DNA of 64,000 nt from Malania oleifera (Eukaryota > Streptophyta > Magnoliopsida > Santalales > Ximeniaceae), in NCBI RefSeq assembly GCF_029873635.1, contig NC_080423.1:111555087-111619086 (forward strand). Reading direction: 5' to 3'. Under the pieces are notes generated by a model, which saw only the letters and a program-made list of their open reading frames with translations, ran no database searches and was not told the DNA's origin. How positions within the stretch are numbered: position 1 is the stretch's first letter; every line of letters begins with the position of its first letter. Positions 6,714 through 53,430 of this stretch are shown in pieces. The position numbers and the translations under genes were made by a program.

Positions 6714-9169
6714 TATAAGAAACTACCGACAAAAATTTAATAAGTGAAGTAATACAGTAAGAGAAAAGATAAGAGAACGAAGAAAGAACAAGAAAAAGAT
6801 GAAATTTTTAAAAAGGGAGATCTACAGAAATTCGTCAACGAACCCAGCGTCTTCGTCGATGAATGTCTCGTAGATTTCGTTGATGAAGTACACCTGTCTT
6901 GTCGACAAAGAGATACCGAGAGTATGATTTCAGGACATCAGGATTCGTTGACGAATCTAGGTCTTCGTCGACGAACTCCCTTTTTGGTTTCGTCGATGAG
7001 TCCACGTGTCTCGTCGTTGAAGACACGTGGCTAGCGGTTTATAAAAGGTGGGAAACGGGTTTTTACGAGAGAAAAACATGTTTTCTCTCCTTCTCTCTCT
7101 AAAATTCAAAACCCTCACCTTCTCTTATGATTTTTGCCTCGTTAAAGCCTGGTTTGATGATCAAAAACCGCCACGAGGTTCGTGGGAAGATTCTCTACAA
7201 TTTAACTGGAGCAGATTTTCAATTTGGAGTTCTGAGGTTTCATCCCAAAACCAGGGTAAGTAGAGCATTTTAGAGTTTAAAGGTTAATTTGGAGTATATA
7301 TGGCCTAAGAAATACTAAATGAGAATTATTCTGGGATTTTGTTAATTTAGTTGGGAAAATATGAATTTCAGGGTTTCAAGTTGTGAACGCCACGAGTGTA
7401 GGGTTGGGTTTATTAGTAAGCCTCTCAGTAAGTCAGGTAAGGGGAATAAATTATAACAGTATTTTCTGAAATTACTGGTTGAATGAATATGTGAAAAGGG
7501 AAAATATGATATTTTTACCTTCGAATATTATGATATGAATATTAGACGAAATTGTGTGGCATGTGAGCAATATTGAAATGTGATGTTTTGTGATATGAAA
7601 TATGATTATAGAAATGTTTTCTATAATGAATAGGGAAATATGAGAATATGTTATGTAATATTGAAAAATGTGGAACTTTCCGGAATGAGATATATATATA
7701 TACTATTATGAGAATGGAATGAGTATTGAAATGATGAGAAAGAAACAAGAATGATGTGAATAGTGAAATGTGATATATACTATTGTGATAAGATATGAAT
7801 ACTAAAATATGAGTATGAAAATGTGAATATTGCTATGTAAATGCTGCAATGTGAATGTTGAAATATGATTACTGGAAATGTGAATATGAAAATGTGAATA
7901 TTACAGTGTGAATACTGCAATGAAAATGTTGAAATGTGAATACTGAAATACGACTATGAGAATGTGAATATTGCAACGTGAATACTATAATATGAATGTG
8001 AAATGTGAATACTAGAATGGTGAATATATAAAAATGTGGAAAATTACAATGTGAATACTGCAAATATGAATACTGGAATGTGAATGAGAAATGTGAATGA
8101 TGAACCCTGATGGACGATTGTTGATATTGAGCACGGTACCGTTGCTAGTGGTGATTACGTGCAATCACATGGACTCGTGAAGCGTGTGGCGTGATAGTCG
8201 AATGAGCCAGTGAGAAGGGTAGTTTTGCCCTTTGGGTCCGAACCAAGGTTTATGGCAGACCATTCGTACTACAAACGAGTATATGGATTGTTTATTTTGA
8301 TCTAATCAGGTAGGCCAACCGTGGTTAGATTCAGCCATCAGGCCGCACAACCTTGACCATGGGGGCAAGCATGGTGTGGAGAATATCCTCAAGGCAGCCA
8401 TGAGTTACAAACGTGGATGTACTAGTTACTGAGGACACTCATGTGCGAGATGATGAAATAAAATTGAAAGTGAAAAGAAAGAGTGTGAGTTTAATAACAT
8501 AAATAATTAAGGCGAATTAGAACTCTCCGCCTGAGGGTTTATTGAGTAAGGTGAGTGCCTTGATAAGTATCAATTGTAGTCAAACCCGAGTTAATCAGGT
8601 AAGGTTACAAATGATATCAGATCAGAGGGGAGCTACATGTATGGGTGTGTAATCTCCCCTATCCTCGGGAACTTTCGCTGATAAACATGGGTTCAATATG
8701 AATGAGATTTAAAAAGAGAATTAAAGCTTTGAAAAGCGTGTGTTGTATATCTATATGATTATAAATGCGAAATTGGTATATGTTTCTCAGAAGGTATTAT
8801 CAATGAAATGAATATATGTTATGATATAATGAAACTCATACTACCACACACTATAAATAATTTATTCCGTCTTACTGAGATAGGTCTCACCCAATCATTT
8901 AAATACTTCAGGAAACCGTAATAGGCCTGGAGATAGAGCTCCAAGATAAAGGGAAGTTGATACCCTGATTAGACAGGGTGAGTGTTTTTTTTGAGTTAGG
9001 GATGTATGTTTCCCCTAGAGTTTGATTGATTTTTGGGGATGAGTTAGATATGTATCTATATGTTTATAGATGTTTAGTACTCTGGTTATCTGTATTTTGG
9101 ATGGTGTGTATGTATGGTCTTTCACTGTTAGGTATGTATTTATATGATAGACTAATTACCCACTATCCT
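6714..9169 (+). mobile_element. LTR I, left part (host of chromovirus B)
   Basis: A probable LTR starts near 6714 (TATAAGAAAC, a decayed TGTAAGAACC-like start). In order it has: a GTCGAC palindrome array (6828-7020), a TATA box (TTTATAAAAGG near 7040), a CT-rich leader, CAGGGTAAG near 7255, an AATGTGAATA-type array (7800-8095), GGTACCGTTGC near 8135, the inverted repeat TGAGA-TAGG-TCTCA at 8876-8889, and ACTCTGGTTAT near 9080. B interrupts it, and it resumes at 34938. C-runs at both outer ends (before 6714 and after 35068) may be its target duplication. Confidence 0.65.
6828..7020 (+). promoter_or_regulatory. GTCGAC palindrome array of LTR I
   Basis: About seven copies or near copies of TTCGTCGACGAA lie directly upstream of the TATA-like TTTATAAAAGG. 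The copies are spaced about 20-35 bases apart with differing filler between them. Confidence 0.6.
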
Positions 9170-10948
9170 TGTAAGAACCCAACCCGTGAGATATGCAGTA
9201 AATAAATAAGAAAAGGGTAAAACAGTAATTTGAGCAAGCTTCATCGATGAAACTCCAGTTTCGTCGACAAAGGCTCTTCTAATGTTCAACGACAAAATGC
9301 AGAGGTTTGATGATGAGTAGAAGCCGAGAGATTTTGAGAAATCCAAAAATCTCAGGCTTGTCGACAATGCCACCGCAACGTCGACGAATTTCCTTCGCTA
9401 GCTCATCAACGAGGTTAGCCGAGTCAAAGGATCTATAAATATCTTTTTCTTTGCTTCTTGTCTAAGATATCAAAATATTCTCTCTCTCTCTCTCTCTAGA
9501 AATCGAAGCTCCACTCTCTCTCTCTTGATTTCTTCTCCGTTCGTCATTAGAATCGACGATCCGACGTTATTGTGGGGATCAGCAAAGGAATCTTTATGCG
9601 TTCTGTGGAACAGATCTTCGTTTTTAGGTCTTCAGGTTTTGACCCAAAAATCGAGGTAAGACTTGGTTTTCATTTCCGTTTCACTAGATCTGTAGAGAGT
9701 AAGATTGTAAGTAATTATCGTACTGTGATTTATAGGTTTTGGGAACTCGGTTCGTTGTTTAAGATCCGTAGAGTTTGTGTTAGATTTTTGGGGAAAGGTA
9801 AGGGGATTCTGTTTATATCGGTTATTTTTGAAATTGGATTTGGTAGAACTGCGGTTCACAATCCTGTGTATGTTTTAGCTACTTATTTGGGGAAGTCTAA
9901 CAAGTAAAATTACGAGATTTTCAAGTTACAATTTTTGGGAAAAAGGGGGCGTCAGGTTGCATCATTGGTTTCGTTGGAAAACCGAGGATATATTGTTGAA
10001 TATATTGTGTTATGGAGATGGTTGTGCCTTGACTTGTTTTAAACTATATTTTGAAAATCATGATTTTGTGATTACCAAATGAGTGTGGAATGAATTGTTA
10101 TATGAATATGCATTGAGTTGTGATTTGCTGAAACGAGATATAGGAATGTGTGTTCTGAATTGTTCCAGGTTATGAAAGAGTGTCCAACTTTATATCTGAG
10201 GGAGTGAAATACCACCTACCAATGGCAAGAGTGTCCGGCTTTATATTCAAGGGTGTGAAATATCGCCTCTTATCGACTGATCACCGAAGGGTGTAGATCC
10301 ACCAGATGTACCGATACAATGCCATGGGAGCTTGGGGCTACGCCATGTGTCGGGGACGCTGTGTAATGCGGGCCAGCTTCGTGCCGAAGGGTGTGACGAC
10401 ACCGGGTTACTTGATCATGTGTGTGTTGAGAGCTATACTGGAACTATTTTGTGGAAATACTAGAACTGAACTGTGTATGTTTTATGTCATGATAACACTC
10501 ATATACCACACACCGATATAACCTGATTTTGCCTTACAGAGATGTGTCTCACTCCTATCGTACTTACATATTTTCAGGTCCTTCGAGTAACCGGAACTAG
10601 CATCCTTGTGTGGGGAGCGTGATGGTCGATTTACTGCGTAGAGTACTTGTGTAAGTACTTGGACTATAATTGGGTTGTCGTTTTGCGTATTGCTGGCACC
10701 TTAGGTTATGTTTTGTATTATGGAGCTTAGACTTTATTTGTATAGACTCTGGTATGGTTCTATGTATGTATAGAATGAACTTTTCCGCTATGTATATGTC
10801 AAGTATGTAAATGTGTATAGGGTGTACGGGAACCCCACGAGGTTGGACCCTCATTCATTATATTATCATGTGTGTTTTGTATGATATAGGGACAAGTTAG
10901 GTTACTACATCACACCCTGGGGCCTATTGCCGGGTTTGGGGTGTGACA
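9170..10948 (+). repeat. 5' LTR of chromovirus B
   Basis: It runs from TGTAAGAACCC to GGGGTGTGACA. It contains palindromes at 9238-9425, a TATA box (CTATAAATATC near 9432), a CT run near 9480-9500, GAGGTAAG near 9652, the inverted-repeat block near 10534-10552 (decayed), and ACTCTGGTAT near 10746. Confidence 0.88.
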
Positions 10949-11239
10949 ACTTGGTATTAGAGTTAACCAGGTTGTTAGGTCTTGCAAACTTGGTTAGGCG
11001 TAGCTATGTGTACATACTAGAGTATAGGATATAAGAAATGGGTAGAATAGGTCATTGGTTCTTTTCTTGCTAGACAGGGACTCATTGGTGGTGTTTTGTG
11101 TTTTTCCTCGAATGAAAATTTCAATAAAATCACGACAAACCATTGAAGGTTTTGTGTCGGTGTGATAGGACAGACCTGGACTCGTGAGATTGGTAGTTAA
11201 CATGATTAGACATCAATGATTGTGTAAACTATATAGGAG

Positions 11240-13516
11240 TGTTGACCCTATGGGTCATATCCTGTTTTGATTATGACAAATACTCAGGTATTTAATGATT
11301 GCCAAGTTGATGTGCAGGTTTATCTTGGCAGTATCCTATGATGGCACTCAGAGACCCGGAGGAAAACGAAGACTCTGAAGACCCTTGATATAATTGATTT
11401 GTTGTAATTTATATTCGGGTCTATAATATTTAAGTAGGAAAGGTCTGTAATAGTAAATAGGTCTTTGGTTTGTAATAAGCTCACACACATCACATGCATG
11501 ATAATACATAAGCTCAAACAAACCATGAATGAGAAAATGACCATAGAAAGACCTTAGGGTGTAAAGGTCGACTGACACCTGACTTTTTCGGTGTCTTCAA
11601 ATTGGACCCCAAGTGCTTCTAGGACACTCATACTTTCACATATATTTGCTAGGCACTTAAATAGGGCTTTATTGTATTAAGACGGGACCGAAATGCACAC
11701 TCGCTGCACTTTCGGTCGATCGGCCAAATCAGTTCATTTTTGGCCTGGTCGACCGAACCATCCTCGGTTCAACTGTTGACCTAGGTCCCGGTCGACCGAG
11801 CCCTTACAGTTCATTTGACCCCGGTCGACCGAACCACCTGGGAGTCAACATTTTGACCTCCCGGTCGACCGACCAACTTTGTACTCCAACTACTTGGTCG
11901 ATCGAAAGGTCCTCGGGAGAATTCCCAGCGTTCTGGTCGACTGAACCATGCAGTTCAAAAAGGCCCGGTCGACCGAACCTCAGAAATTTGGAAAATCGCC
12001 TTGCCTCGGTCGACCGACCACTCAATTCAAAATACCCCTGGTCGACCGAGCCACTTGAGTCCTGGTCGACCGGACCTCTCGGGTTGCTCCTATTTTTTTT
12101 ACCGCGATTAAATGGTTTAAGCAGGGTTAAAATATTTGAAAGGTCATTAAACTTTCCTAATTATTCCAAATAGGTCCCCAACGGTTATATTTCAAGGGTT
12201 GTCTATAAATACCCCCTCATTTGAGATAATTAGCATTGGATTAAAAATATTGATTAAGAGAAATTCTCTGAAAATCCCAAATCCTATAATACTTATATCC
12301 AATCCCCATTCACTCCTGCTTACCTTCTTCGATTTCTTAAATTCTCTGTAAGTCGATTGAGTGTTTATATTTAATAGGTTTGCTCTCCTATTCATATTTG
12401 ATTGATTTATTTTCATTGAGAGCCAAACCTAAGTATTCTTAGAGACTTTGTTAATAAGTCTATCCTAAGAAGACTTTGATAGATCTTCTAAGATTTGCAC
12501 CTTCATTGCAACATCTTAAGAAGATTGTATTTGTTTTTGGTTGCAAAACATTTTCAAAATACTTTCAAATATCTAGTGTGCTTTGTCTTGATAAATCTTT
12601 GAAGAGATATTTGTTTGTGTGAGAAAAATCTTTGTTGCAATATTCATTGATTTATATCTTTAGTTGAATACAAAGATTAAACTCTTTTTGCAAACCAAAC
12701 TTATACATTGCTAGAACTTCATATACATATATGTATTGAGAAAACTTGTTGATTGAAATATATGAAGTTTGGATAATATCTTTGTTTGAGCACTTAGATT
12801 GAATACATCTTGTGATACAAAGATTGTAGTGTTCACATTCTCACGCACTGATTACAACGATAGTAAATCTATTTGAGAGTAGACATCTTAAACCACACTG
12901 AGCTTACATATTGAATCATATTGTGGTGTATGTGATATTGCGCGTATCTGGGTACACATCTGCTTTACTTGAAAGCTTATTCATTGTACCATTTGATTGT
13001 ATTTCAAATATTGTCTTATTTCCAGGCACGGGCCTAAAGAGGGAGACTAGCCCTGGAATAGTCCCGGATTGGCTTAGACCCGGTTAGGAAAGCTAGGTGT
13101 GTCGTCCTGTTAAGGCGTGTAGGTTGAGGTCAGCCCCGCTAATTGACCTAGTTAAGGTTGAGGTCAGCCCTGTGTTAATTTGACCTGGTTGTAAACAGTG
13201 ACGCTCCACCCTTAAGTGAGCCTTTAGTGGAATCCTCGAGCTTGCGAGCTAGAGGCGGGGACGTAGGCACAGTTGGCCGAACCCCGATAACATTTCGTGT
13301 GTTCATTTACATTTCCGCATTTTATATTTACCGCACATGTATGTTATGGGTGAATGATGCGTATAACTTAATTTCCACATTATATTTATCTACGCATTTG
13401 GAAATTGCATAGACTGACCATAGGTTGAGTATATATTGGTGTTGGATAGATTATCCTAGGAGAAAAAGTTTTAAATTCCAATTCACCCCCCTATTGCGAA
13501 TACACCAATTCTAACA
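11240..13516 (+). mobile_element. Solo LTR, SIRE-like Ty1/copia
   Basis: A 2277-base LTR runs from TGTTGACCC to CAATTCTAACA and is flanked by perfect 5-base duplications AGGAG (11235-11239, 13517-13521) inside B's leader. It has a palindrome array at 11710-12075, a TATA box (CTATAAATACC near 12202) and an AATTCACCCCC block near its end, typical of SIRE/Maximus-type copia LTRs. No internal region remains, so it is a solo LTR. It is related to LTR K at 36363-38330, which lies on the other strand. Confidence 0.85.
11710..12075 (+). promoter_or_regulatory. Array of GGTCGACCGA palindromes
   Basis: About ten copies of (C/T)GGTCGACCGA are spaced 23-45 bases apart, for example near 11746, 11790, 11822, 11862, 11967, 12007, 12040 and 12064. 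They lie about 130 bases upstream of the TATA box at 12202. Each is a palindrome centred on GTCGAC, as in the unrelated gypsy LTRs of this window. Confidence 0.8.
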
Positions 13517-14577: not shown

Positions 14578-15029
14578 TGTAGTGACCCGAAGAATAATAA
14601 CATTTTAATAATAAGAGGGAGAGAAAATAGATATAGAAATAGAAGGAGACCGCAAACTTCGTCGACGAACACAGGGTTTCGTCGACGAAGGCTTCAAGGA
14701 TTTCGTCGATGAGAAAATACCGAGAAGGGTTCTGAGGCAGCCTGAATTTCATCGACAAATACAGGGTCTCATGTTGCGGGAAATTGCCAAGCTTCGTCGA
14801 CGAACATAGGGTTTCGTCAACGAAGGCTTCAAGGATTTCATCGACGAACACAGGGCTTCGTCGACGAGAAAATACCGAAAAGGGTTCTGAGGCAGCCTGA
14901 ATTTCGTCGACGAATATAGGGTCTCGTCAACAAAATTTGTGAAGGACTCGTCAACGAAGAACAAGCTCATCGACGAAATCCCTTGTTTTATATATACGAA
15001 AATCCGTGAATTATTTCATTTTTAAGAAA

Positions 15030-15067
<38 letters not shown>

Positions 15068-15720: not shown

Positions 15721-15752
<32 letters not shown>

Positions 15753-27181: not shown

Positions 27182-27624
27182 CGAAGGGGAGAGAGAGAGA
27201 GGAGAGAGTCAGCTTCTTTAGGAAGTTCAAAATTTGGATTTTGCTATTTATAGAGCAGGGGATTCGTCGACGAGCCACGTCATTCGTCGATGAATCCTTC
27301 AATAATTTTGTCGTTGAAATTCAGTTGGCTCAAACGTATCTCGGTATTTCTTCGTCGACGAATCCCCTGTATTCGTCAACGAATTCTCTTATACCCTCAT
27401 CGACGAGTCCCCTGTATTCATCGATAAATTTTATTATACCTTCGTCGACGAATCCCCTGTATTCGTCAACGAAGCACTGATGATTTCCCCTTGGTTATTC
27501 CTTCCAAAGTGCAATGTCATCGACGAACACAAACATCGACGAAGTCGACTGCCTCCTTCTATTTTCGGTTTCCATTTTCCTCTCTTTTTATTATATAAAC
27601 CTCATTATTATTCGGTTCGTTACA
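26820..27624 (-). mobile_element. LTR E, 5' part
   Basis: On the minus strand this is the LTR start (TGTAACGAACCG, ending at 27624), with a GTCGAC palindrome array (27255-27535), TATA-like CTATAAATAGC near 27243, a long GA/CT microsatellite (27125-27200) and a leader resembling 53570-53690 of LTR N. The right target copy GTCAG at 27625-27629 matches the left copy at 22191-22195 exactly, proving that the two E pieces belong together. Confidence 0.82.
27125..27210. repeat. (GA)n microsatellite in LTR E leader
   Basis: About 28 GA units are followed by a second interrupted run. Equivalent CT runs stand in the same leader position in LTRs C (15030), N (53485, 53518) and B (9480). Confidence 0.95.
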
Positions 27625-27990: not shown

Positions 27991-29773
27991 TGTAACGACC
28001 CGAATTTTAAATGAAATTTAAATGATAAAAAAAAAAAGGAAATGGAAGTTGGGAAAAGAAGGGATGCTGCTAAGCTTCGTCGACGAACACAGGGTTTTGT
28101 CGACGAAGGCTTTAAAGATTTCATCGACGAGAAAACACCGAAAGGGGTTCTGAGGTAACCTGAATTTCGTAGACGAATACAGGATCTCATCGACAAAATT
28201 TATGAAGGACTCATCGACGAAGGTCGGGCTCGTCGACGAATTTCGTTGTCCTATAAATATGGAAATCCGGAAGTTTAAAGCTTCTTTAAGAAGCTAACTC
28301 TTTTCCCTCTCTCTCCCCTTCGGTCCTCTCTCCTTTTTTTGTCGATTTCGAGCCAGATCTTCGCTGGATCGACAATCCGAAGTCACCATGACGCTCCTGG
28401 CGGAGTTCTCTCCAAATATGCTGGAGTGGATCATCGGTGAAAGTAAGGTGGAAACCATCCCAAATCCAGGGTAAGGCTTTTTACTTAATATTTGGATTTG
28501 TGACAGTTGAGAAAAGTGTTTTATGCGTTAAAATATTAAAGTTTAATATTGAGAGTTTTCATTTCCAGGGGTGTTGATTGGGAACGTTGGGAATCATCCC
28601 TGAGTTGAGGTAATACTTTTAAGCCGAATTTGACTTAATGGTAGTTATAAGAAATGTTATACACGTTGAAATACTAAAGTTTAATTCTGTGAGTTTTTAT
28701 TTTCAGGGTATTGAGTTAGGAACCCTGCGAGGGCGGGGAAGACTTTCTTAAGGGCTGTTCAGGAATCAGGTAAGGGAATAAAATTAACTAGTTTTGTTTT
28801 GAGAAAATGCATGTATATATATATAGCATCTGGTTTCAGGAAAAATAAATATATTTATATATATGATTTATATTTAGAAAATACTGTTTAAATGATGATA
28901 TGTTGAATACGTGGAAAATTTGTTCAGTGTGGCATGAGTATAAAAATGTTGTGAAATAATGTTTTCTGGGGAATGGGGATGATATGGATTTCTATGAAGG
29001 AAAACCGGCATACGGGATGAGATATTTATATATATATATATATATATGATTTTATAGCGTATGGACCATGCTATGTGGATGGGATTTGCCGGTATACGGG
29101 CCGAGCCATGTGATTTTCTAGCATACGGGCCGGGCTATGTGATTTGCCAGCGTACGGGTTGGGCTATGTTATTTGCCGGCGTACAGGCTGAGCTATATGA
29201 TTTTTGAGCGTACGAGCTGAGCTATGTGATTTGCCGGCGTACGGGCCGAGCTATGTGATTTGGCAACGTACGAGCTGGGCTATGTGATTTGCTAGCATAC
29301 GGGCCAAGCTATAAAAAAATGTGTAATACCAGCGTACGAGCCGATGATTTTCATGATACATGTATATATATGCAAATGATATGATTGATGTGAAAATGAA
29401 TGATATGTGATATCTATGTATCACGATTTTAGTATATGTATATGATATCAGAACCTGGTTGGCTTGTTTTAGGCTAGCACTTGCATGGTACCGTTGCTAT
29501 GTGTCCATGGTCTTCGTGATCATGATATCTGTGTTAACGCCGCTGTACGGAGTGGTGTGAGATTGGATGGTCGATGTGGTTATTTTCAAGAAGTATGCTG
29601 TTATCGCCCCTGGTGTACGGACCAGTCTGGATAGACCCATCGGACCTACAGATTAGACTATTGACTTGGCAGTGGTCGGCCAACCATTGTCAGGTCCTGC
29701 CTTCGGGCCACACAACCCAGTCATGTGGGGATAATACATGACAGCAGCTAGCTAACCTACCAGGAATGTTTTA
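27991..29773 (+). mobile_element. LTR G, 5' part
   Basis: The LTR starts TGTAACGACCCG with target copy GTACG (27986-27990). It has palindromes at 28075-28245, TATA (CTATAAATATGG near 28251), CAGGGTAAGG near 28470, CAGGTAAGGG near 28770, a minisatellite (28990-29345), GGTACCGTTGC near 29488 and GGGCCACACAACCC near 29706. LTR H interrupts it at 29774; it resumes at 32128. Confidence 0.82.
28990..29345. repeat. GGCGTACGGGCC minisatellite in LTR G
   Basis: About eight or nine units of 35-40 bases read GCCGGCGTACGGGCCGAGC plus TATGTGATTT with drift. A related array stands at the same LTR position in N (54070-54310). Confidence 0.88.
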
Positions 29774-33269: not shown

Positions 33270-34937
33270 TGTAAGAACCCGACTCGTGAAATATGAAATA
33301 AATAAATAAGAAAAGGGTAAAATAGTAATTTGAGCAGGCTTCGTCGCCGAAGCTAGAGTTTCATCGATGAAGGCCCTTCTAATGTTTGGTGACAAAATGC
33401 AAAGGTTCGTCGATGAGGAGAAGCCGAGAGATTTTGGGAAAACCAAAAATCTCAAGCTTGTCAATGAGGCCACCGCAACGTAGACGAATTTCCTTCACTG
33501 GCTCATCGACGAAGATGCCGCCTCCTCGACGAGGTTGGCTGGGTCAAAGGCTCTATAAATATCTTTTCCTTTGCTTCTTGGCTAAGATATCAAAATACTC
33601 TCTCTCTCTCTCTCTCTCTAGAACTCAAAGCTCCACTCTCTCTCTCTCTCTTGATTTCTTCGCCGTTCATCGTTAGAATCGACGATTCGACATTTCTGCA
33701 TGGATTAGGAAAAGAATCTCTACGTGTTCTGTGGAACGGATCTTCATTTTGAGGTCTTCGGGTTTGGACCCAAAAATTGAGGTGAGACTCGATTTTCATT
33801 TTCGTTTCGGTAGATCTGTAGAGAGTAAGATTGTAAATACTGTGATTTATAGGTTTTGGGAACTCGGTTCGTTGTTTAGGAACCTAAAGTTCATGTTAGA
33901 TTTTTGGGGAAAGGTAAGAGGATTCTATTTATATCGGTTATTTTTGAAATCGGATTTGGTAGAACTATGGTTCATAATCCTGTGTATGTATGTTTTGGTT
34001 ACTTATTTGGGGAAATCTAACGGGTAAAATTATAGGGTTTTCACGTTACAATTTTTGGGAAAAAAGGGGCGTCGGGTTGCATCTCTAGTTTCATTGGAAA
34101 ATCGAGGATATATTGTTGAATATATTGTGTTATGGAGATGGTCGTGCCTTGACTTGTTTTAAACTGTATTTTGAAAATTATGATTTTGTGATTACCAAAT
34201 GAGTGGGGAATGAATTGTTATATGAATATGCATTGAGTTGTGCTTTGCTGAAATAAGATATTAGAACATGTGTTCCAAATTGTTTCAAGTTGTGAAAGAG
34301 TGTCCGGCTCTATATTCGATGCTGTGAAATACCACCTGTCAGTGGCAAGAGTGTCCGGCTCTATATCTGAGGGCATGAAATATCACCTCTTACCGGGGAC
34401 GCCGTGTAATGTGGGCCAGCTTCGTGCCGAAGGGTGTGACGACACTGGGTTGCTTGATCATGTGTGTGTTGAGAACTATACTGGAACTATTTTGTGGAAA
34501 TACTGGAACTGAACTGTATATATTTTATGTCATGATAACACTCATATGTCACACACCAATATAACCTAATTCTGCCTTATCGAGATGTTTCTCACCCCTA
34601 TTGTCCACATATTTTCAGGTACTTCAAGTAACCGGAACTAGCGTCCTTGTGTGGGGAGCAAGGTGGTCGGTTTACTACGTGGAGTACTTTTGTAAGTACT
34701 TGGACTGTAACAGGATTGTCGTTTTGGGTATTGCTGGCACCTTGGGTTATGTTTTATATTATGGAGGTTAGACTCTATTTGCATAGACTCTACTATGGTA
34801 CTATGTATGTATGGAATGAACTTTTTCGCTGCATATATGTCGTGTATGTGAATGTGTATAGGGTGTACGGGTTCACAAGGACAGGTTAGGTTACTACATC
34901 ACACCCTGGCGTCCATTGTCGAGTTTGGGGCGTGACT
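33270..34937 (+). repeat. 3' LTR of chromovirus B
   Basis: It pairs with 9170-10948. It has palindromes at 33335-33540, TATA near 33556, a CT run at 33598-33618, AGAGTGTCCGGCTC units near 34298 and 34350, and a decayed inverted repeat at 34581-34594. It is followed by the target copy ATCCT. Confidence 0.88.
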
Positions 34938-36100: not shown

Positions 36101-38330
36101 TCGTTTTCATGATTGGGAAACTTTGCATTTTGAAACATTTTCAATGGGATATGATTACTTTAACAATCACTTTCCAAATCCTCCAATCATCTGATTTAAC
36201 AAAAATGCTAATTTTCAATGTCCACAAGGTAAAAACTATAAAAGAGAAGTAGTGGAGGATTTGCAAAGGATTGACCCTCAAACAGGGATACTCCAAATAT
36301 GAGCTGTTGCAAACTGTATGCAAATATGGTTAAACTTATTGCAATCGAGCTCTGATACCAATTGATGGGAATGGTGTAATTACAAGAGGGGGTGAATTGG
36401 AGATTTAAAACTTTTTAGGTCAGTTTAAGATCTCAGATAGTATTTCACAACTTAGGATTTTTCTAAGCAGTCTCAATTCCCCCAATAAATCAAGTATGCA
36501 AATATTTAAAACATATGACATTCTCTACAAATTAAATATTTTCATACAACAAACACATCATATCCCCATTAAGATTTAAAGCGTGTATGTGAAATAATTA
36601 GCTATGTGTGCTGACATACACATGTGCAGCATATCTTATTTAATTTAAATGTGTGCAGATAAATAATTATAACTATAAATGAACAAGCATACACATATGA
36701 AAATTGAAGTGTAGAAAAATAAATGAGATAGACACACACACACACACACACACACAATTTGTTATTAAGGTTCGGTCAAACCAGCCTACGTCCCTGCTTT
36801 TGGCATACCCTCCAAGGATTCCACTATCCCTGCTCACTTAAACGGGCAGAACAAGAGCCGTTTACAACCTTTCCTTACGGGGCAAGGTAAACCCTAGCTA
36901 CACTTACTAGGCGTAGCTATAACTCAACAACACTTTATGGGTGGTGCCCACACCCAACTCAATTACCAAACTAAGCTCAACTAGTCTCCCTTACGGGGCG
37001 GAGACTCCCTAATTCAATTTACGAGCTGAACACAACCAGTCTCCCTTACGGGGCTGAAATTCCCCAGTTGAATTTACGAGCGGAACCCAACTGGTACAAT
37101 AAAAATATTTTTGTACAAAATACATACTTCTAAATACAAGAAGAGATGTACAACAATAAAGCTCCTAAAATGCACTCTCTAATGATATGAAATAAGATCA
37201 AGGAGTAAAAGTGTTTTGCTTAATATAAAATTTTCACTCTTTGAAAATAATGCATATGCTAAATACTCAAAGATTGAAACCCTATAAAATATTTCTCCAC
37301 AAAAATATTTATCAAAGGAAAACAATATAAAAAACCTTTAATCTTACTCTCAAGGATTGTTTTTCAAAAGTAAAAGCTTGAGAGAGTAAGTGCTCATAAA
37401 TAAATGCCCAAATAAAATGCTCTTTTCCAAAATATTTTTTTGAAATTAATAATAGGAAAGAGAGTTTGAGAGAGTGTAAAACTTTACCCCAAATAAGATT
37501 TTGCAATAAAAATATTTTTCGGGGAACTTTGATTAAGAAAAGTTTTGAGAGAATTTTAAAACTAATCAAAGTTACTAATTGTGCTAATGAAATGGGTATT
37601 TATAGACTCTCAAAAAAATATGACCATTGGGGACACGCTCGTCATTTTGGAAAAAATTAAGTGAAAAATTAATGACGATTAGCGTTTAAAAAATAAGTCA
37701 ACCCAAGAGGTTCGATCGACCGGAGCAAGGGTTGGTTGGCTGACCTCACTTAAAGATTTTGAATTTACTTTTGGGTTTGGTTGGCTATGGGAGGCGACCG
37801 GTCGGCTGACCAAGGCAATTTTTTGAACCTTTGTAGGTTCGGTCGACTGAGCCTAAGTCTGAATTGCTGGTTCTTAAGGTCCAGTCAGCTAATGGCATTT
37901 TGACCTAAGAGATCGGTAGGTCTAGGCATGTAGAAAGTCTAAGTTTTAAAGTCGGTTGACCGGAAGCAGTGTTAAAAAATGGTCAGTCGACCGAGCCTAG
38001 TCAAACATTTGACTTATGGCTGGTCGGTCGACTAATGCACATTTGAAAAAGATTTTGTATGAAAGTTTTAGGTCCATTAAGGTCATTCTATGATTATCTG
38101 ACCTTTTCATCCATATCATGCAAATGCATGCATTATTACAAACCAAGGATATAAAACAAAAATGCATTACAATAGAGCAAATATGTCTTATTCTTTTTCC
38201 TTTTTGCTCTTCTGACTTCATGGAATGTGTCTGATTGTATGAGCTTTTAAGTTCATCAAGCCTCCGTTTTCTTTTCTCTTATGTGCGTGTTTTGAAATAA
38301 AACCTGTTCACAAACTAAATAAATACATAA
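36100..38330 (-). mobile_element. SIRE-like copia element K: leader and most of 5' LTR
   Basis: On the minus strand the LTR runs from 47168 (TGTTG) through 47116, skips element A, continues from 38330 to 36363 (ending CCCATCA), and is followed by a primer-binding site complementary to initiator tRNA-Met (36349-36360). The leader enters a gag-like start near 36320-36141 (DDWRIWKV). The LTR shows decayed GTCGAC palindromes (37700-38040) and TATA (CTATAAATACC, minus strand, near 37598). The rest of the element is not recognisable in the window. It is broken. Confidence 0.75.
36733..36756. repeat. (AC)n microsatellite
   Basis: About twelve AC units lie inside the K LTR. Confidence 0.95.
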
Positions 38331-40207
38331 TGTAAGAACCCGAACCATGATAACTGGGTTTAAATAAGTTAGAGAGGGGCAAATTAGGAATTTGGCAGAT
38401 TTCGTCGACGAAGCCATATTTCGTCGATGAAGCCTTTGTTCTTCTCGTTGAAGAAATTCAGAGACTTGTCGACGAGGAGAAGCCAAGGAGTTTCGGAAAT
38501 CAGGAATATCAGGATTCGTCGACTAGGCCACCGATACATCGACGAAGTCAGTGGAAGATTCGTCGATGGAGGCACCATTTTGTCGACGAATTGAGCCGGG
38601 TCAAAGGGCTATAAATAGAAAATTTCCTTACTTCTTCATTAAGAAAACTCAATTCTATCTCTCTCTCTCTCTAGAACTCTCCCTACTCTCTCTCTCTCTA
38701 GATTTCTTCGCCGATCGTTGTTAGAATCGGAAATCTGAAGTTACCACGATGATCGTGGAAGGATTCTCTACGATTTCTACGGATCGGAATCTTGTTTCGG
38801 AGATTTTCGGGTTTTGGCAAAAAATTGAGGTAAGACTCGGTTTTCAATTCTGATCCAGTAGTTTTGTAGGTAACTATCTTGTGAGCATATTCTATACTGT
38901 GATTTGTAGGTTTTGGAACTCGGTTTGCTATTTAGGGGCCTTAGAGTTCGGGATTTGTTATTCGAGGAAAAGGTAAGGGGAACTATGTTTGTATTGGTTA
39001 TTTTTAAAATCAGACTCGGTGAAACTGTAGTTCATGGTCCTGTGTGTGTTTTGGCTACTCATTTGGGGGAATCTAACGGGGAAAACTATGGGTTTTTCAT
39101 TATTATAGTTTTGGGAAAAAGGGGGCGACGAGCTGCATCCTTGGTTTTGTTGAAAACCGTGAGTATATGTTGATTTATACTGTGATATTAGGATGACCGT
39201 GCCTTGACTTGTTTAAACTATATTTGTTTGAAAAACCATGATTTAAATTACCAAATGGGGTGGTTTGTTTGGTTATATGAGCATGCATGTGTGTGTGATA
39301 TGTTGAAATGCTAATAGGAACGCGGTTATGAATTGTTCCAGGTATTGAGTGTCCGGCTCTATATCTAGGGGCGTGTGTTTACCGCCTGCCATGTGGGTAG
39401 GAGTGTTCAGCTCTATATCCGAGGGCGTGTGTTATCGCCTGCCATGTAGGCAAGAGTGTCCGGCTCTATATCCGAGGGCGTGAGCCTATTCCAACAGATC
39501 AGGTTGAAGGGTGTGGATCCACCAGTTATGCGCTGGTACAATGCCATGGGAGTCGAGGACTAGCCATGTGCTGGTGGCACCGTGTTCGCGGGTTGGCTAT
39601 GGGCCAAGGGCGTATGTCGTGGGCCGGCTTCGGGCTGAAGGATGTGATGACACCAAGATTACTGATCATGTGTATGTGTATAAGTGTGTGTGTGCACTGT
39701 GGAAACTAGTACTGGAATGCATTTAACTGCGTGTATGTTGTATCATGATAACACTCAAATGCCACACACCGATATAACTTGTGTTCTTCCTTACTGAGAG
39801 GTGTCTCACCACTGCTGTACGTACATTTTTTACAGGTCCTTCGGGTAATCGAAACTAGCGTCCTGCTGTAGGGAGTGTAGTGGCCGGTGTACCGCATTTA
39901 GCGCTGGGTAAGTGCTAGGACTGTAATTTTGGTGGGTTGCCATTTTGGGATGTATTGGGCACTCGTTTGTACGTTTTGATTGAGCATTGTGTCTGCTCTT
40001 GTATAGACTTTGGTATGGTACTCTATATGTATGTATGGTTGTTCCACTGTGTGTATGATTGTGTTTGGATGTGTTTAGGGTGCCTGGGAACCCCACGGGG
40101 TTGGACCCTCATCCTTTGCACTATATCTGTGATGATTTGTATGATACAGGGACATGTTAGGTTACATTCTCACCCTTGGGTCCCATTTCGGTGTTCGGGG
40201 CGTGACA
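38331..40207 (+). repeat. 5' LTR of chromovirus A
   Basis: It has palindromes (38398-38592), TATA (CTATAAATAG near 38612), CT runs (38656-38700), GAGGTAAGAC near 38828, three AGAGTGTCCGGCTC units (39350-39490), the inverted repeat TGAGAGGTGTCTCA (39794-39807) and ACTTTGGTAT near 40007. Confidence 0.93.
38398..38592 (+). promoter_or_regulatory. GTCGAC palindrome array, element A 5' LTR
   Basis: About eight copies or near copies of TTCGTCGACGAA occur, last near 38580, about 20 bases before the TATA box at 38612. The 3' LTR has the matching array at 45315-45490. Confidence 0.7.
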
Positions 40208-41480: not shown

Positions 41481-41559
41481 CTACAGTTAGTGGGGACCGA
41501 GGGAGCAATCAGATACCTCAGGGAACCATTCAGACGAATATAGCTCTGGCCAGAGTATA

Positions 41560-44500
41560 CTCTCTTACTCCAGCGGACGCTGAGCATGCAGGTAACGTGG
41601 TGATAGGTACCTTGTTATTGCTTTCGAATAAAGCTTCTGTTTTCTTTGATTCGAGTGCAACCCATTCCTTTGTATCTATGAATTTTGTGGGACGGTGTGG
41701 GGTTGAGACTCGAGACATGAATGAGGTGTTATCTGTTACTACACCATCTAAGAGTGTATCTTTCTGTAGGAAGATGTGGGTAGACTGCCCAGTGGTAATT
41801 CAGGAGAAGCTGCTACCGACGAATCTTGTGGTATACGACATGTCAGGGTTCGATGTCATTATGGGGATGGAGTGGGTGTTCTCCAGTTATGCTGTGATCG
41901 ACTATCGTAGGAAGGTGGTAGTTTTCAAACCTCCTAGGGAGCAGGAGTACGAATTTGTGGGATCGTGTGTGCGTCCAGCACCACAGATTCTGTTAGCACA
42001 CTACAAGTGAGGAGGCTACTCTTGGACGGATGTCAGGGGTACCTAGCTTGTATGAAGGAATCGCCACGGGATGTATTGAGACTCGAGGACATTCGGGTAG
42101 TCAGTGAATTCCCAAATGTGTTTCCAAATGATTTACCCGGTTTACCTCCAGATTGTGAGGCAGAATTTGCGATAGAGTTGCTGCCTGGTAAGGCACCGAT
42201 CTCTAAAGCTCCTTACCGGATGGCTCCAGTAGAACTTCAGGAGTTGAAGGAGCAGTTGCAGGAATTAATGGACAGGGGATTCATTCGACCTAGTGTTTCG
42301 CCCTAGGGAGCTCCAGTACTGTTTGTGAAGAAGAAGGACGGGTCGATGCGGATGTGCGTTGATTACCGTGAGATTAATAAGGTGACTATGAAAAATTGAT
42401 ATCCTTTACCGCGTATAGATGATCTCTTTGACCAGTTGCAGGGCACGCGGGTCTTTTCGAAGATCGACTTGCGATCAGGATATCATCAGGTGAGGGTCAA
42501 AATGGAGGATGTAGCAAAAACTGCTTTCCGAAACAGATATAGCCACTGTGAGTTCTTAGTCATGCCTTTTGGGTTGACGAATGCTTCGGCGGTGTTCATG
42601 GATTTGATGAACAGGGTTTTCCATGAGTACCTGGATCGGTTCGTAGTGATAATCATTGATGACATTCTGGTTTACTCGAGGAGTACAAAAGAACACGTGG
42701 AACATTTGAGGTTAGTGTTGCGGGAGAAGAAGCTGTATGTTAAGATGAAGAAATGTGAATTCTGGTTGAGTCAGATTGCGCTCTTAGGCAATGTGGTTAC
42801 TAGGGATGGTATATCAGTTGATCCCAATAAGATTGAAGCTGTGGTCGACTGGGTAAGACCGAAGAATGTGCAGGAGGTTTGAAGTTTTCTGGGACTGACA
42901 GGTTACTATCATCGATTCGTAGATGGTTTCTCTAAACTAACTGGACCTCTGACACGATTAAGTAGGAAAGGAGTGTAGTTTGAATGGATCGGTGATTGCG
43001 AGCAGTGCTTTCAGAAGTTGAAGCACTGGCTGGTTACTGCTCCAGTTTTGACCATTCCTTTGGGGGATGGTGGGTTTGTGATTTATAGCAATGCATCTCT
43101 AAAAGGCCTTGGATATGTGCTCATGCAGCAGGGCAAGGTAGTAGTTTATGCCTCTCAGCAACTGAAGGAATATGAGAAGAATTAACCTACGCATGATTTG
43201 GAATTGGCTGTTGTGGTATATGCATTGAAGATCTGGCGACATTATCTGTATGGGATGCTGTGTGAAATCTTCACTGATCATAAGAGTCTTAGGTATTTCT
43301 TCACACAGAAGGAGTTGAGCATGAGGCAGAGGCAGTGGCTAGAGTTGTTAAGGACTACGATTGCATGATCAGTTATCACCCAGGGAAGGCTAATGTGGTA
43401 GCTGATGCATTGAGTCAAAAGTCAGGGCCTACGGCTGTATCTGCAGTTGTAACTCAGTGTCACATCAGACGGGATTTGGAAAGCTTAGGTATAGAGTTGG
43501 TGGTTGGTGATCATCAGGCTTATCTTGCTGGGTTGGTGGTCCAACCAACCTTATTTGAGCGTATAAAAGCCGCGCAGGCTAGTGATGTAGAGTTGGCAGA
43601 GGTTATGGAAAAGGTACAATAGGGACTGGCTACAAAGTTTAATATCTCTAAGGGGGTGTATTGAGGTTTGGGACCATATTGTGTGTTCCGAATGATGATG
43701 AGATCAGAAGGACGATTCTAGAGGAGGCGCAACGTTCTATGTATACGGTACATCCTGGTAGTACGAAGATGTATCGGGACTTGCACGAGATCTTCTGGTG
43801 GTCTAGTATGAAAAGGCAGATTGCTCAGTTCGTGGAGCAGTGTCTGACGTGTCGGCAAGTGAAAACTAAACATCAGAGGCCGGTAGGGCCGTTGCAGCCT
43901 TTGCCTATTCTGGTGTGGAAATGGGAGCATATTTTCATGGATTTTGTGACCGGTTTGCCACTAGCACTTCACGGGCAGTATGCTATTTGGGTGAACGTGA
44001 ATAGATTGACAAAATATGCTCATTTCATACCAATGAAAGTTGGCTATCCTTTGAGTAGGCTAGTAGATTTGTATGTGCATGAGATTGTGAGAATGCGCGG
44101 AGTACCGGTGTCCATAGTATCAGATCGGGATCGAAGGTTTACTTCTCGATTCGGGATGAGCTTGCAGGAGGCATTGGGGATGAAGCTTACTTTCAGTACA
44201 GCGTTCCACCCCCAGACTAATGGATAGTTGGAGAGGACGATACAGATATTGGAAGATATGTTGTGAGCTTGTGTGTTGGACTTCGATGGTAGCTGGATAC
44301 AATTTATGCCACTTGTAGAGTTCTCTTATAACAACAGCTTCCAGTCTAGTATCAGGATGGCACCGTTCGAGGCTTTGTATGGTCGGAGGTGTCAATCTCC
44401 TTTGTGTTGGGATGAGGTTGGTGAACGTTAGGTGTTAGGACCTGAACTCATGCAGCATACGTCTGAGAAGGTGGGTTTGATCTGGGAGAGGATTAGATCA

Positions 44501-44990
44501 ACTAAGAGTCGGCAGAAGAGTTATGCAGATGTTCGCCGCCATGAGTTAGAGTTCGAAATGGGAGGTAAGGTATTTCTGTGTATCGCTCCGATGAACAGGG
44601 TGATGAGATTTGGGAGGAAGGGCAAGTTGAGCCCAAGGTATATCGGACCATTCGAGATACTTGAGCAGGTGGGTCTAGTAGCCTACAAGATTGCATTACC
44701 TCCAGCACTTTCGAGGGTCCACGATGTGTTTCACGTATCCATGTTGAGGAGGTACGTGTTGGATCCTTCGCATGTTATTAGTTATGATGAGTTGGAAATT
44801 GGGGATACTTTAGCATATGAGGAGATACCTGTTCAGGTTCTGGACCGTAAAGTTCAGAAGCTTCGTACCAAAGAGATACCGTTAGTGAAGGTATTGTGGC
44901 GAAACCACGAGATTAAGGAAGCTTCTTGGGAACTGGAAACGGAAATACGTCAGAAAGTATCCACAATTGTTTTGAGCACTTGTACATGAT
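41560..44990 (+). mobile_element. pol region of chromovirus A
   Basis: Domains in order are: retropepsin-like protease (about 41600-41990), reverse transcriptase (about 42040-42880, with [10 protein letters not shown] near 42650), RNase H (about 43000-43400), integrase zinc finger and core (about 43730-44400, with WKWEHIFMDFVTGLP near 43918) and C-terminal chromodomain (about 44830-44960, IPLVKVLWRNHEIKEASWEL). The chromodomain and purine tract place it among chromoviruses, probably the Tekay clade. It is broken, with no complete polyprotein. Confidence 0.92.
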
Positions 44991-45245: not shown

Positions 45246-47110
45246 GTTGTAAGAACCCGAACCATGATAACTAGGTTTAACTAAGTAAGAGAGGGGCAAA
45301 TTGGGAATTTGGCAGATTTCATCAACGAAGCCTTTGTTCTTCTCATCGACGAAATTCAGAGACTCGTCGACGAGGAGAAGCCGAGGAGTTTCGAAAATCA
45401 AAAATATTAGGATTCGTCGATGAGGCCACCGATTCATCGACGAAGTCAGTGGAAGATTCGTCGACGAAGGCACCATTTCGTCGACGAATTGGGCTGGTTC
45501 AAAGGGCTATAAATAGAAATTTTCCTTACTTTTTCATTAAGAAAACTAAATTCTATCTCTTTCTCTCTCTCTAAAACTCTCCCTACTCTCTCTTTCTCTA
45601 GATTTCTTCGCCGATCGTTGCTAGAATTGGAAATCTGAAGTTACCACGAGGATCGTGGAAGGATTCTCTACGATTTCTACGAATCGAAATCTTGTTTCAG
45701 AGATTTTGGGGTTTTGGCAAAAAATTGAGGTAAGGCTCGATTTTCAATTCTGATCTAGTAGTTTTATAGGTAACTGTCTTGTGAGCATATTCTATACTGT
45801 GATTTGTAGGTTTTGGAACTCGGTTTTCTGTTTAGGGGCCTTAGAGTTCAGGATTTATTATTCGGGGAAAAGGTAAAGGGAACTATGTTTATATTGGTTA
45901 TTTTTGAAATCAGACTCAGTGAAACTATGGTTCACGGTCCTGTGTGTGTTTTGGCTACTCATTTTGGGGAATCTAACGGGGAAAACTATGAATTTTTCAT
46001 TATTACAGTTTTGGAAAAAAGGGGGCGAAAGGCTGCATCCTTGGTTTTGTTGAAAACCGTGGGTATATGTTGATTTATACTGTGATATTGGGATGGCTGT
46101 GCCTTGACTTGTTTAAATTGTATTTGTTTGAAAAACCATGATTTAGATTACCAAATGAGTGTGGTTTGTTTGGTTATATGAGCATGCATATGTGTGTGAT
46201 ATGTTGAAATGATAGTAGGAACGCGGTTCTGAATTGTTCCAGGTACTGAGAGTGTCCGGCTCTATATCCAAGGGCGTGTGTTTACCGCTTGCCATGTGGG
46301 CAAGAGTGTCCGGCTCTATATCCGAGAGCGTGTGTTATTGCTTGCCATGTAGGCAAGAGTGTCCGGCTCTATGTCTAAGGGCGTGAGCCTATTCCGGCAG
46401 ATCAGGCCAAAGGGTGTGGATCCACCAGTTATGCGCTAGTACGATGCCATGGGAGTCGAGGACTAGCTATGTGCTGGTGGCACCATCTTCGCGGGCTGGC
46501 TATGGGCCAACGCCGTATGTCGCAGGCCGGCTTCAGGCCGAAGGGTGTGACGACACCAAGATTACTAATCATGTGTATGTGTATGGGTGCGTGTGTGCAC
46601 TGTGGAAATTAGTACTGAAATGCATTTAACTGCGTGTATGTTGTATCATAATAACACTCAAATGTCACACACCGATATAACCTGTGTTCTTCCTTTCTGA
46701 GAAGTGTCTCACCCCTGCTGTACGTACATTTTTTACAGGTCCTTCGGGTAACCGGAATTAGCATCCTGGTGTTGGGAGCGTAGTGGCAGGTGTACCGCGT
46801 TTAGCGCTGGGTAAATGCTAGGACTGTAATTTTGGTGGGTTGCCATTTTGGCATGTATTGGGCACCCATTTGTACGTTTTGATAGAGCATTCTGTCTGCT
46901 CTTGTATAGACTCTGGTATGGTACTACATATGTATGTATGATTGTTCTACTGCGTGTATGATTGTGTTTGGATGTGTTTAGGATGCCTGGGAACTCCACG
47001 TGGTTGGACCCTCATCCTTTGTTCTGAATCTGTGATGATTTGTATGATATAGGGACATGTTAGGTTACATTCTCACCCCTAGGTTCCATTTCGGGGTTCG
47101 GGGCGTGACA
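45246..47110 (+). repeat. 3' LTR of chromovirus A
   Basis: It pairs with 38331-40207 over its whole length and carries the same palindrome array, three AGAGTGTCCGGCTC units (46250-46385), an inverted repeat at 46697-46710 and ACTCTGGTAT near 46909. It is followed by target copy CATAA. Confidence 0.93.
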
Positions 47111-49101: not shown

Positions 49102-49159
49102 ACCTACCTACATCCTCCTCCTCCTCCCCAGCCAGTTTTGGAGGTAGTTGTGATTGATT

Positions 49160-53098: not shown

Positions 53099-53164
53099 GT
53101 AACGACCCGAATAATAATGAGGTTTATATAATAAAGAGAGAGAAAAATGGAAACAGGAAACAGA

Positions 53165-53430
53165 AGGAGGTAGTCGACGAAGTGTTCGTCAACGACATTA
53201 CATTTTGGAAGGAAAAACAAAAAGGGGGATCATTAGGGCTTCGTCGACGAATCCCCTGTATTCGTCGACGAGGGCTTTAGAGAATTCATCAACGAAGACT
53301 GAATTTCGTTGATGAAAAATTATCGAGAGAGGTTTTGAACTGACTGAATTTCGTCGACGAGGATTGAATTTCGTCGATGAAATTAATGAAGGATTCGTCG
53401 ACGAATGACGTGACTCATCGACGAATTCCC
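53165..53430 (+). promoter_or_regulatory. GTCGAC palindrome array of LTR N
   Basis: About nine copies or near copies of TTCGTCGACGAA occur, the last ending a few bases before the TATA box. Unit order and fillers (TCCCCTGTATTCGTCGACGA) also occur in LTR E on the other strand. Confidence 0.7.

What the first reader, a model, noticed from the sequence alone, without database searches (positions are those of the whole stretch)
6828..53430. Palindrome arrays centred on GTCGAC upstream of TATA in two unrelated LTR superfamilies
Chromovirus LTRs (A, B, C, E, G, I, N) carry about seven to eleven copies of TTCGTCGACGAA just before the TATA box. The SIRE-like copia LTRs (11240-13516 and, decayed, K) carry about ten copies of GGTCGACCGA in the same place. 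The flanking bases differ but the palindromic GTCGAC core and the position agree. Gypsy and copia LTRs share no ancestry here, so this suggests convergent recruitment of a host dimeric DNA-binding protein, or a shared silencing or methylation target (each unit has one or two CpGs).
Basis: partly seen in the sequence, partly recalled or inferred. Interest (0 to 1): 0.75.

Follow-up and report, generated by a model that had tools for sequence, protein, structure and literature searches.

The report
Shared palindrome arrays in retrotransposon promoters
In one large plant genome, unrelated families of jumping genes carry clusters of short mirror-image DNA sites with the same six-letter centre just upstream of their promoters, as if several had learned to use the same plant control protein; one half of this was already published, the other half I did not find in print.

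Summary
Arrays of TTCGTCGACGAA lie 10-20 bp before the TATA box of nine gypsy-type LTRs; a CGGTCGACCG array lies about 130 bp before TATA in a copia solo LTR. The copia half is published: Bousios 2010 (PMC2829016) lists CGGTCGACCG as the LTR repeat of a Vitis Sirevirus.

The window's own 1.49-Gb genome holds 37,861 exact TTCGTCGACGAA (reversed-pattern control 67) and 37,462 CGGTCGACCG (256). I also found a third class, AACCGTCGACGGTT (2,630; control 4), present letter for letter in gypsy and copia LTRs that show no other detectable similarity. In 20 sampled 10-kb stretches GTCGAC is the only strongly enriched, clustered six-base palindrome apart from simple repeats.

Between families motifs are kept (80% identity; spacers 48%) and spacing is quantised. 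In the one LTR pair tested, motifs decay like the rest of the LTR, which argues against a special methylation hot spot.

Best reading: sites for a host dimeric DNA-binding protein, used by several LTR lineages. The protein is not identified; RNA-structure and U3-exchange rivals remain. New variant of a known kind.

The parts
6831..7021 (+). TTCGTCGACGAA-class array, 8 sites, steps 21-24-22-46-20-25-21, TATAAAAG at about 7040
9240..9413 (+). decayed array of the same type, 6 sites (4 of them at up to 3 mismatches); TATAAATA at about 9434
11240..13516 (+). Sirevirus-like copia solo LTR with flanking AGGAG target-site duplication
11713..12072 (+). CGGTCGACCG array, 11 sites, steps alternating 32-33 and 39-43 (last 24); TATAAATA at about 12204
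14658..14977 (+). TTCGTCGACGAA-class array, 12 sites; TATATATA at about 14989
27263..27543 (-). TTCGTCGACGAA-class array on - strand, about 10 sites; TATA box (- strand) at 27245-27252
28076..28240 (+). TTCGTCGACGAA-class array, 7 sites, steps 20-24-46-20-24-19; TATAAATA at about 28252; preceded by a stretch (27625-27993) that matches the integrase end of the 38331-47110 element
33340..33533 (+). decayed array of the 9240 family, 6 sites; TATAAATA at about 33554
37713..38034 (-). decayed copia-type array (CGGTCGACCG class), 6 sites at up to 2 mismatches, steps 41-31-113-41-86
38401..38590 (+). 8-site array in the upstream LTR of a chromovirus-type element, steps 19-24-21-50-20-24-20; TATAAATA at 38610
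45318..45488 (+). 7-site array in the downstream LTR of the same element; TATAAATA at about 45508
44432..44986 (+). integrase C-terminus (SH3_Tf2-1) with a weak, below-cutoff Chromo match, of the element flanked by the 38331 and 45248 LTRs
53240..53425 (+). TTCGTCGACGAA-class array, 8 sites (two lone sites at 53170 and 53185 before it); TATAAATA at about 53437
4063..4215 (-). remnant array of the 9240-type LTR in inverse orientation
1932..2164 (+). strongly decayed remnant of the same LTR family (two recognisable sites)

Best explanation
The arrays are the U3 enhancer part of LTR promoters: rows of binding sites for a host sequence-specific protein that binds as a dimer to GTCGAC-centred palindromes and activates transcription from the adjacent TATA box. 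Several LTR-retrotransposon lineages in this plant (gypsy LTRs with two array types, a Sirevirus-like copia, a copia with Pol_BBD/SH3_retrovirus domains and another copia-type element) carry such rows with their own flanking bases (YTCGTCGACGAR, AACCGTCGACGGTT, CGGTCGACCG). Shown: the arrays, their position, their genome-wide abundance, motif conservation between families with ordinary decay in one LTR pair, quantised spacing, and the same 14-mer in gypsy and copia. Inferred: that a host protein binds them, that it is one protein or one protein family, and that it activates rather than represses.
For: Genome-wide excess over reversed-pattern controls: 37,861 vs 67, 2,630 vs 4, 37,462 vs 256; the reversed patterns hold GpC where the motifs hold CpG. 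Oriented position: 812+778 genomic cases of TTCGTCGACGAA 5-35 bp before CTATAAATA (orientation control not obtained). 13 of 15 GTCGAC clusters (3 or more exact sites; window plus 20 sampled loci) have a TATA box within 150 bp downstream in one orientation, against 18.8% of random places. In held loci 54 sites lie upstream and 7 downstream of a TATA within 60 bp (402 strand-sites; 12 of the loci were fetched for the motif). Conservation: over 36 pairs of nine U3s motif identity is 0.80 and spacer identity 0.48; non-CpG positions 2, 5, 8, 11 changed in only 5, 5, 5 and 6 of 240 clustered sites. Spacing: of the first 50 genomic pairs listed, 33 are at 19-21 bp and 17 at 23-25 bp although 12-42 was allowed, with many different spacers. 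Sharing: the exact AACCGTCGACGGTT lies in gypsy LTRs (L033, L034) and copia LTRs (L021, L035), with no gypsy-copia blastn similarity left after motif masking. Between integrase end (44986) and 3' LTR (45248) of the window's element only about 260 bp remain, little room for an element-encoded DNA-binding protein.
Against: No binding protein was identified and no expression or binding data were available. The three classes differ at the bases next to the core and in length, so one protein would have to be tolerant. Spacing rules differ between classes. Variation at positions 1 and 12 of the TTC class is independent between half-sites (Fisher OR 1.09, p 0.77), so strict dyad symmetry is not demanded there. 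Published Sirevirus motifs in other plants conserve CGG..CCG and not GTCGAC, and their authors found no common binding factor. The alignments were guided by the motifs and sites were chosen by similarity, which inflates motif over spacer identity. The masked comparison is not very sensitive: only 6 of 13 within-class pairs still match after masking, so its silence between gypsy and copia is weaker than it looks. The genome-wide orientation control did not complete.
Confidence: 0.55

Rival explanations
1. The arrays matter as RNA or DNA structure: in the 3' end of the transcript the copies pair with one another into hairpins that feed small-RNA silencing (or serve RNA processing), as proposed for maize Sirevirus palindromes.
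For: RNA folds of three arrays are far more stable than dinucleotide shuffles: z -6.1, -4.5, -7.2, with 0 of 200, 0 of 200 and 0 of 100 shuffles as stable. Palindrome-rich LTR regions are small-RNA mapping hotspots in maize Sireviruses (passages of PMC5311732 and PMC10760457).
Against: Any set of repeated palindromes folds well, so this does not discriminate. No compensatory covariation between half-sites. Structure alone does not predict one common centre across superfamilies, nor fixed spacing next to TATA. Being a silencing target is a cost and would not by itself conserve the motif between active families (inference).
Confidence: 0.15
2. The arrays are ordinary inherited U3 features of each lineage and the common GTCGAC centre is a coincidence.
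For: Most chromovirus-type LTRs of the window are related and share the 20-24-20-46 layout, so they count as few events. Sirevirus interiors vary between species. Two arrays sharing a given 6-bp palindromic centre has a prior chance of about 1 in 64, or more if CpG centres are favoured (my estimate).
Against: A third class, identical over 14 bp, occurs in both superfamilies; GTCGAC is the only strongly enriched clustered palindrome of 64 apart from simple repeats in 200 kb.
Confidence: 0.12
3. The arrays spread between lineages by template switching or gene conversion of U3 segments rather than arising independently; function as in the main explanation.
For: Exchange of an LTR segment between a copia and a gypsy family has been proposed for RLG_Quinta and RLC_Gisela in wheat (passage of PMC11302176). 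The 14-mer is identical in both superfamilies. Spacer similarity is lost even between related arrays (0 of 3 pairs of the window's TTC-class U3s match once motifs are masked), so an old exchange would leave no trace.
Against: With motifs masked no similarity is left between gypsy and copia array regions. Distances to the TATA-like box differ: gypsy 20-21 bp in 3 of 4 loci and 64 bp in L033, copia 88 and 95 bp.
Confidence: 0.14
4. The sites bind a protein encoded by the elements themselves, for example an anti-silencing factor of the VANC kind (recalled, not tested).
For: Arrays of short motifs in non-coding parts are what such factors recognise (recalled).
Against: Sharing across gypsy and copia; about 260 bp between integrase and 3' LTR in the window's chromovirus-type element, so little room for a second gene there. 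Internal regions of the other families were not surveyed.
Confidence: 0.04

Closest known systems
Sirevirus repeated motifs (RM boxes), Bousios et al. 2010, PMC2829016 (abstract, sections 9, 10, 19 and passages read)
   Same: Palindromic motif in at least eight copies per element, clustered in the upstream half of the LTR before a conserved TATA box, rich in CpG. The Vitis element has exactly CGGTCGACCG, 10 copies in the LTR.
   Different: That paper reports RMs as a Sirevirus-specific feature, absent from the classic Ty1/copia it compared. Here similar arrays sit in gypsy LTRs and in further copia-type elements, and they share a GTCGAC centre rather than CGG..CCG.
Maize Sirevirus cis-region palindromes (Bousios et al. 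2016, not held; seen only through passages of PMC10760457 and PMC5311732)
   Same: Clusters of palindromes in the LTR regulatory region, strong predicted secondary structure.
   Different: Different palindrome (CACCGGAC..GTCCGGTG, which one of these passages also reports in Helitrons); small-RNA data exist for maize, none here.
Arrays of repeats, sometimes palindromic, in cis-regulatory regions of other TE families (one sentence of PMC10760457 citing others; Tnt1 box I mentioned; Tto1 recalled)
   Same: Short repeated elements that act in TE promoters; so palindromic TE arrays outside Sireviruses are not new as such.
   Different: I did not see those papers. No centre shared across superfamilies is mentioned in the passages seen.
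RLG_Quinta / RLC_Gisela shared LTR motif in einkorn wheat, PMC11302176 (passages read)
   Same: A regulatory stretch shared by a gypsy and a copia LTR.
   Different: A 162-bp homologous segment, probably acquired by exchange, not an array of short palindromes.

Membership tests
Sirevirus RM array (copia LTR 11240-13516) | palindromic motif with CGG..CCG signature, at least eight copies | tested here: met
   11 sites at up to 2 mismatches to CGGTCGACCG in 11713-12072; identical to the Vitis RM
Sirevirus RM array (copia LTR 11240-13516) | array starts 200-400 bp into the LTR and lies upstream of a TATA box near mid-LTR | tested here: inconclusive
   TATA at about position 965 of 2,277 behind the array fits; the main array starts about 470 bp into the LTR, later than the published range (a lone site is at about 325 bp)
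Sirevirus RM array (copia LTR 11240-13516) | CpG-island character | tested here: met
   CpG o/e 1.13 in the array, 0.65 in the LTR behind it
Sirevirus (copia genus) | Sirevirus gag-pol phylogeny | not testable with these tools
   the window copy is a solo LTR without coding sequence
Sirevirus RM array (chromovirus-type LTRs) | CGG..CCG signature in the palindrome | tested here: not met
   240 clustered sites follow YTCGTCGACGAR
Chromovirus (Ty3/gypsy), element 38331-47110 | gypsy-type RT and integrase with Tf2-like SH3 | tested here: met
   RVT_1, Integrase_H2C2, SH3_Tf2-1
Chromovirus (Ty3/gypsy), element 38331-47110 | C-terminal chromodomain | tested here: inconclusive
   Chromo match at the expected place but below Pfam's cutoff, E 0.0014; a second integrase at 23082-23735 gives E 0.022
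Chromovirus clade (Tekay, Reina, CRM, Galadriel) | RT phylogeny placing it in one clade | not tested
   no reference RT set used
Sites of a named plant transcription factor | binding in DAP-seq, ChIP or EMSA | not testable with these tools
   no motif library or binding data available

The most novel reading that the evidence does not exclude
One host DNA-binding protein of this plant lineage, specific for GTCGAC-centred palindromes, has become the common transcriptional switch of several unrelated LTR-retrotransposon superfamilies, which independently evolved arrays of its site with lineage-specific flanks and spacing. A large share of the genome's retrotransposons would then be under one regulator, with about 78,000 exact sites of the three classes (sum).
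Probability: 0.3. Interest if true: 0.82.

Novelty: new variant of a known kind. Interest (0 to 1): 0.6.

Why it matters
Which host proteins switch on plant LTR retrotransposons is mostly unknown outside a few stress-induced families. A centre shared by gypsy and copia arrays in one genome gives a concrete probe (a 12- to 14-bp palindrome) with which to fish for that protein, and tens of thousands of natural variants to map its specificity. It also shows that palindromic promoter arrays of the Sirevirus kind occur in gypsy elements too.

Tried and rejected
Special methylation target: not supported for the chromovirus-type arrays. In the one LTR pair available motif CpGs differ in 8 of 38 aligned cells, U3 spacer CpGs in 2 of 10 and CpGs in the rest of the LTR in 27 of 134; non-CpG 4 of 46, 10 of 177 and 102 of 1,456.

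Selection for dyad symmetry by compensatory change: tested over six position pairs in 240 clustered sites, none significant.

Helical phasing: in the AACC class 19 spacings fit a 10.3-10.4 bp period (R 0.81; 0 of 20,000 random sets as good), but spacings within related LTRs are not independent and I left out the three spacings of L036 (30, 46, 31), of which 46 is off phase. The TTC class (122 spacings, only those in the three main peaks were entered) does not fit (R 0.30-0.33); the window copia array fits weakly (R 0.57-0.59, n 10). I do not build on it.

Relatives elsewhere: no match of the paired TTC motif in viral contigs. No plant genome other than the window's own was searched.

Literature: among the titles and abstract openings shown by ten searches I saw no paper on palindromic arrays in gypsy LTR promoters. 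Lists were capped (40 of 85 shown; 14 of 16; 20 of 171), and only open PMC papers are held. Passages only were read of PMC5311732, PMC10760457, PMC11963269, PMC11302176, PMC11656987, PMC12786077 and PMC6911290. W-box, DRE and MYB resemblances were considered from memory and left out, as no motif library was at hand.

TATA-like boxes of the AACC loci were sought with a word list that I widened after seeing the sequences; in L016 the box is only TTAATAGG.

Missing control: the genome-wide orientation control (CTATAAATA before the motif) did not complete; the held-data version (54 vs 7) stands in for it.

Full report
What is there. The window is a nest of decayed LTR retrotransposons (self-comparison). 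Nine LTR promoters carry arrays of TTCGTCGACGAA (6-12 recognisable sites; the 9240 copy has 4 at up to 3 mismatches) ending 10-20 bp before a TATA box. A copia solo LTR at 11240-13516, flanked by AGGAG on both sides, carries 11 sites of CGGTCGACCG about 130 bp before TATA; a decayed copia array lies at 37713-38034 on the - strand. Counts exceed shuffles by far: 35 vs 0.02, 24 vs 1.36, and 51 vs 5.57 for bare GTCGAC. 46 of 51 GTCGAC fall into 3.3 kb of arrays and 5 into the other 60.7 kb, at spans drawn by hand after the sites were seen.

Which elements. The element with LTRs at 38331 and 45248 encodes Retrotrans_gag, a zinc knuckle, RVP_2, RVT_1, Integrase_H2C2 and SH3_Tf2-1, with a weak Chromo match below Pfam's cutoff behind the integrase (E 0.0014). 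This fits a chromovirus; I did not place it in a clade. The 28076 array follows a stretch that matches this element's integrase end (27625-27993). For the other LTRs the assignment rests on similarity or layout and, for 6831, on layout alone. The copia LTR holds no coding sequence, so its Sirevirus status rests on motif, LTR layout and CpG content.

The copia half is known. Bousios et al. 2010 (PMC2829016; abstract, sections 9, 10 and 19 and passages read) describe palindromic repeated motifs upstream of TATA in Sirevirus LTRs. Their Table 3 gives CGGTCGACCG for a Vitis element with 10 LTR copies. They name CGG..CCG as the conserved signature, with variable interior, and call the motif Sirevirus-specific among the copia elements compared. 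Hence one shared centre between this array and a gypsy array would by itself be weak evidence.

The genome. The window lies in a 1.49-Gb genome without name; I infer a plant from its elements and from a 540-residue PPR reading frame at 49154-50776. Exact counts against the pattern read backwards: TTCGTCGACGAA 37,861 vs 67, CGGTCGACCG 37,462 vs 256, AACCGTCGACGGTT 2,630 vs 4. The reversed patterns have GpC in place of CpG, so they are not CpG-matched; CpG is the rarer of the two in such genomes, which makes the comparison conservative (inference). In 20 stretches of 10 kb chosen by place on ten contigs (200 kb, 5 kb of it N), GTCGAC occurs 57 times against 9.2 expected, and 35 of the 57 are clustered. 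Of the 64 six-base palindromes only the simple repeats CGCGCG and GCGCGC are more enriched; among the 20 most enriched, shown in the output, the others with clustered copies are TATATA, ATATAT and, at 1.7-fold, ATGCAT. With 8-base palindromes the clustered ones are GGTCGACC and CGTCGACG (4 and 3 triples), then GAAATTTC (2) and TTACGTAA (1).

A third class across superfamilies. Listing the GTCGAC clusters of the sample showed AACCGTCGACGGTT. Seven loci were read; four of them (L033-L036) were fetched by the exact motif, and L015 has near matches only. L033 and L034 follow a gypsy integrase end (SH3_Tf2-1); L015 matches L034, and L016 matches L015, outside the motifs. L021 is copia (Pol_BBD, SH3_retrovirus, weak RVT_2). 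L035 is copia-type by its PBS, its C-rich LTR end and a gag that reaches Pfam copia gag models only weakly (E 0.013 and 0.092). L036 lies near a gypsy gag, but I could not tell whether its array is in an LTR. With motifs masked, blastn (E up to 0.01) finds no similarity between gypsy and copia array regions. Within classes 6 of 13 pairs still match: 4 of 6 AACC gypsy, 2 of 3 Sirevirus-like, 0 of 3 TTC class, 0 of 1 AACC copia. So the silence between superfamilies is suggestive, not proof of independent origin. TATA-like boxes follow the last site by 20-21 bp in three of four gypsy loci (64 bp in L033) and by 88 and 95 bp in the copia loci, with a word list that I widened after seeing the sequences.

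Position and spacing. 13 of 15 clusters with three or more exact GTCGAC in window and sampled loci have a TATA box within 150 bp downstream in one orientation (L029 and L031 have none); random places 18.8%. Genome-wide 812+778 exact cases have CTATAAATA 5-35 bp behind TTCGTCGACGAA; the mirrored control was asked for repeatedly and never answered. In held loci 54 sites lie upstream and 7 downstream of TATA (402 strand-sites; 12 of these loci were fetched because they hold the motif). Of the first 50 genomic pairs listed, all on one contig, 33 are spaced 19-21 and 17 spaced 23-25 bp although 12-42 was allowed, with many different spacers; the full count is 3,123 pairs, control 0. The window copia array alternates 32-33 and 39-43 bp.

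Conservation and decay. In 240 clustered TTC-class sites (up to 3 mismatches, window plus L001-L032) positions 2, 5, 8 and 11 changed 5, 5, 5 and 6 times. The six CpG positions changed 27 to 53 times, 190 of 220 changes being C to T or G to A. Positions 1 and 12 are T/C and A/G. Selecting sites by similarity biases these numbers towards conservation, though not between CpG and non-CpG positions. Over 36 pairs of nine U3s motif identity is 0.80 and spacer identity 0.48. In the two closest pairs the relation reverses (0.86 vs 0.93; 0.83 vs 0.88), as expected if motifs are held by selection between active families and then decay through CpG. In the LTR pair of one element motif CpGs differ in 8 of 38 cells and CpGs in the rest of the LTR in 27 of 134. 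So, on this one pair, the arrays are no special mutational or methylation hot spot after insertion.

Structure. RNA folds of three arrays have z-scores of -6.1, -4.5 and -7.2. This agrees with the maize Sirevirus work (passages of PMC10760457 and PMC5311732) but follows from any palindrome array and does not decide.

Mechanism. I favour binding of a host dimeric protein to GTCGAC-centred sites as an enhancer next to TATA. Shown are the position, the abundance, the between-family conservation, the spacing and the sharing of an identical 14-mer by gypsy and copia. Inferred are the protein, its being one protein, and activation. Against it stand the differing flanks and spacings, the lack of half-site covariation, and the absence of any binding data.

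Novelty. Palindromic LTR arrays are a known kind, and PMC10760457 cites work on repeat arrays, sometimes palindromic, in other TE families (those papers were not seen). Gypsy arrays of this kind and a 14-mer shared by gypsy and copia were not among the titles and abstract openings shown by my ten searches, some with capped lists and all limited to open PMC papers. Hence a new variant of a known kind, interest 0.6.

Noticed in passing
L015:456-665, L016:570-686 (- strand), L033:1470-1618, L034:1401-1585, L021:7138-7253 (- strand), L035:1459-1607 (- strand): Third palindrome class AACCGTCGACGGTT in both gypsy and copia LTRs, spacings mostly close to multiples of 10.3-10.4 bp; no such array in the window.
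   Followed up: partly
window 29079-29312 and 54101-54283: Related 29-32 bp minisatellites (TTTGCC.GCGTACGGGCCG) in matching regions behind two of the arrays, probably inside long LTRs.
   Followed up: no
window 39347-39482 and 46249-46385: A 53-bp repeat, about 2.5 copies, in both LTRs of the element at 38331-47110.
   Followed up: no
window 31035-31270: 25-bp minisatellite TATTTATGTTATCGGCACGAGGCCG, about 8.5 copies.
   Followed up: no
window 11235-13521: The copia solo LTR sits right at the junction between a chromovirus-type LTR (similarity ends at 11234) and its internal region (similarity resumes at 13523).
   Followed up: no
window 49154-50776: 540-residue open frame with PPR repeats and E/E+ motifs, a host-type gene in this repeat-rich window; other host genes were not looked for.
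   Followed up: no
L036:1501-1621: AACC-class sites about 380 bp upstream of a gypsy gag frame (from 2003); unclear whether they lie in an LTR or in a leader.
   Followed up: partly
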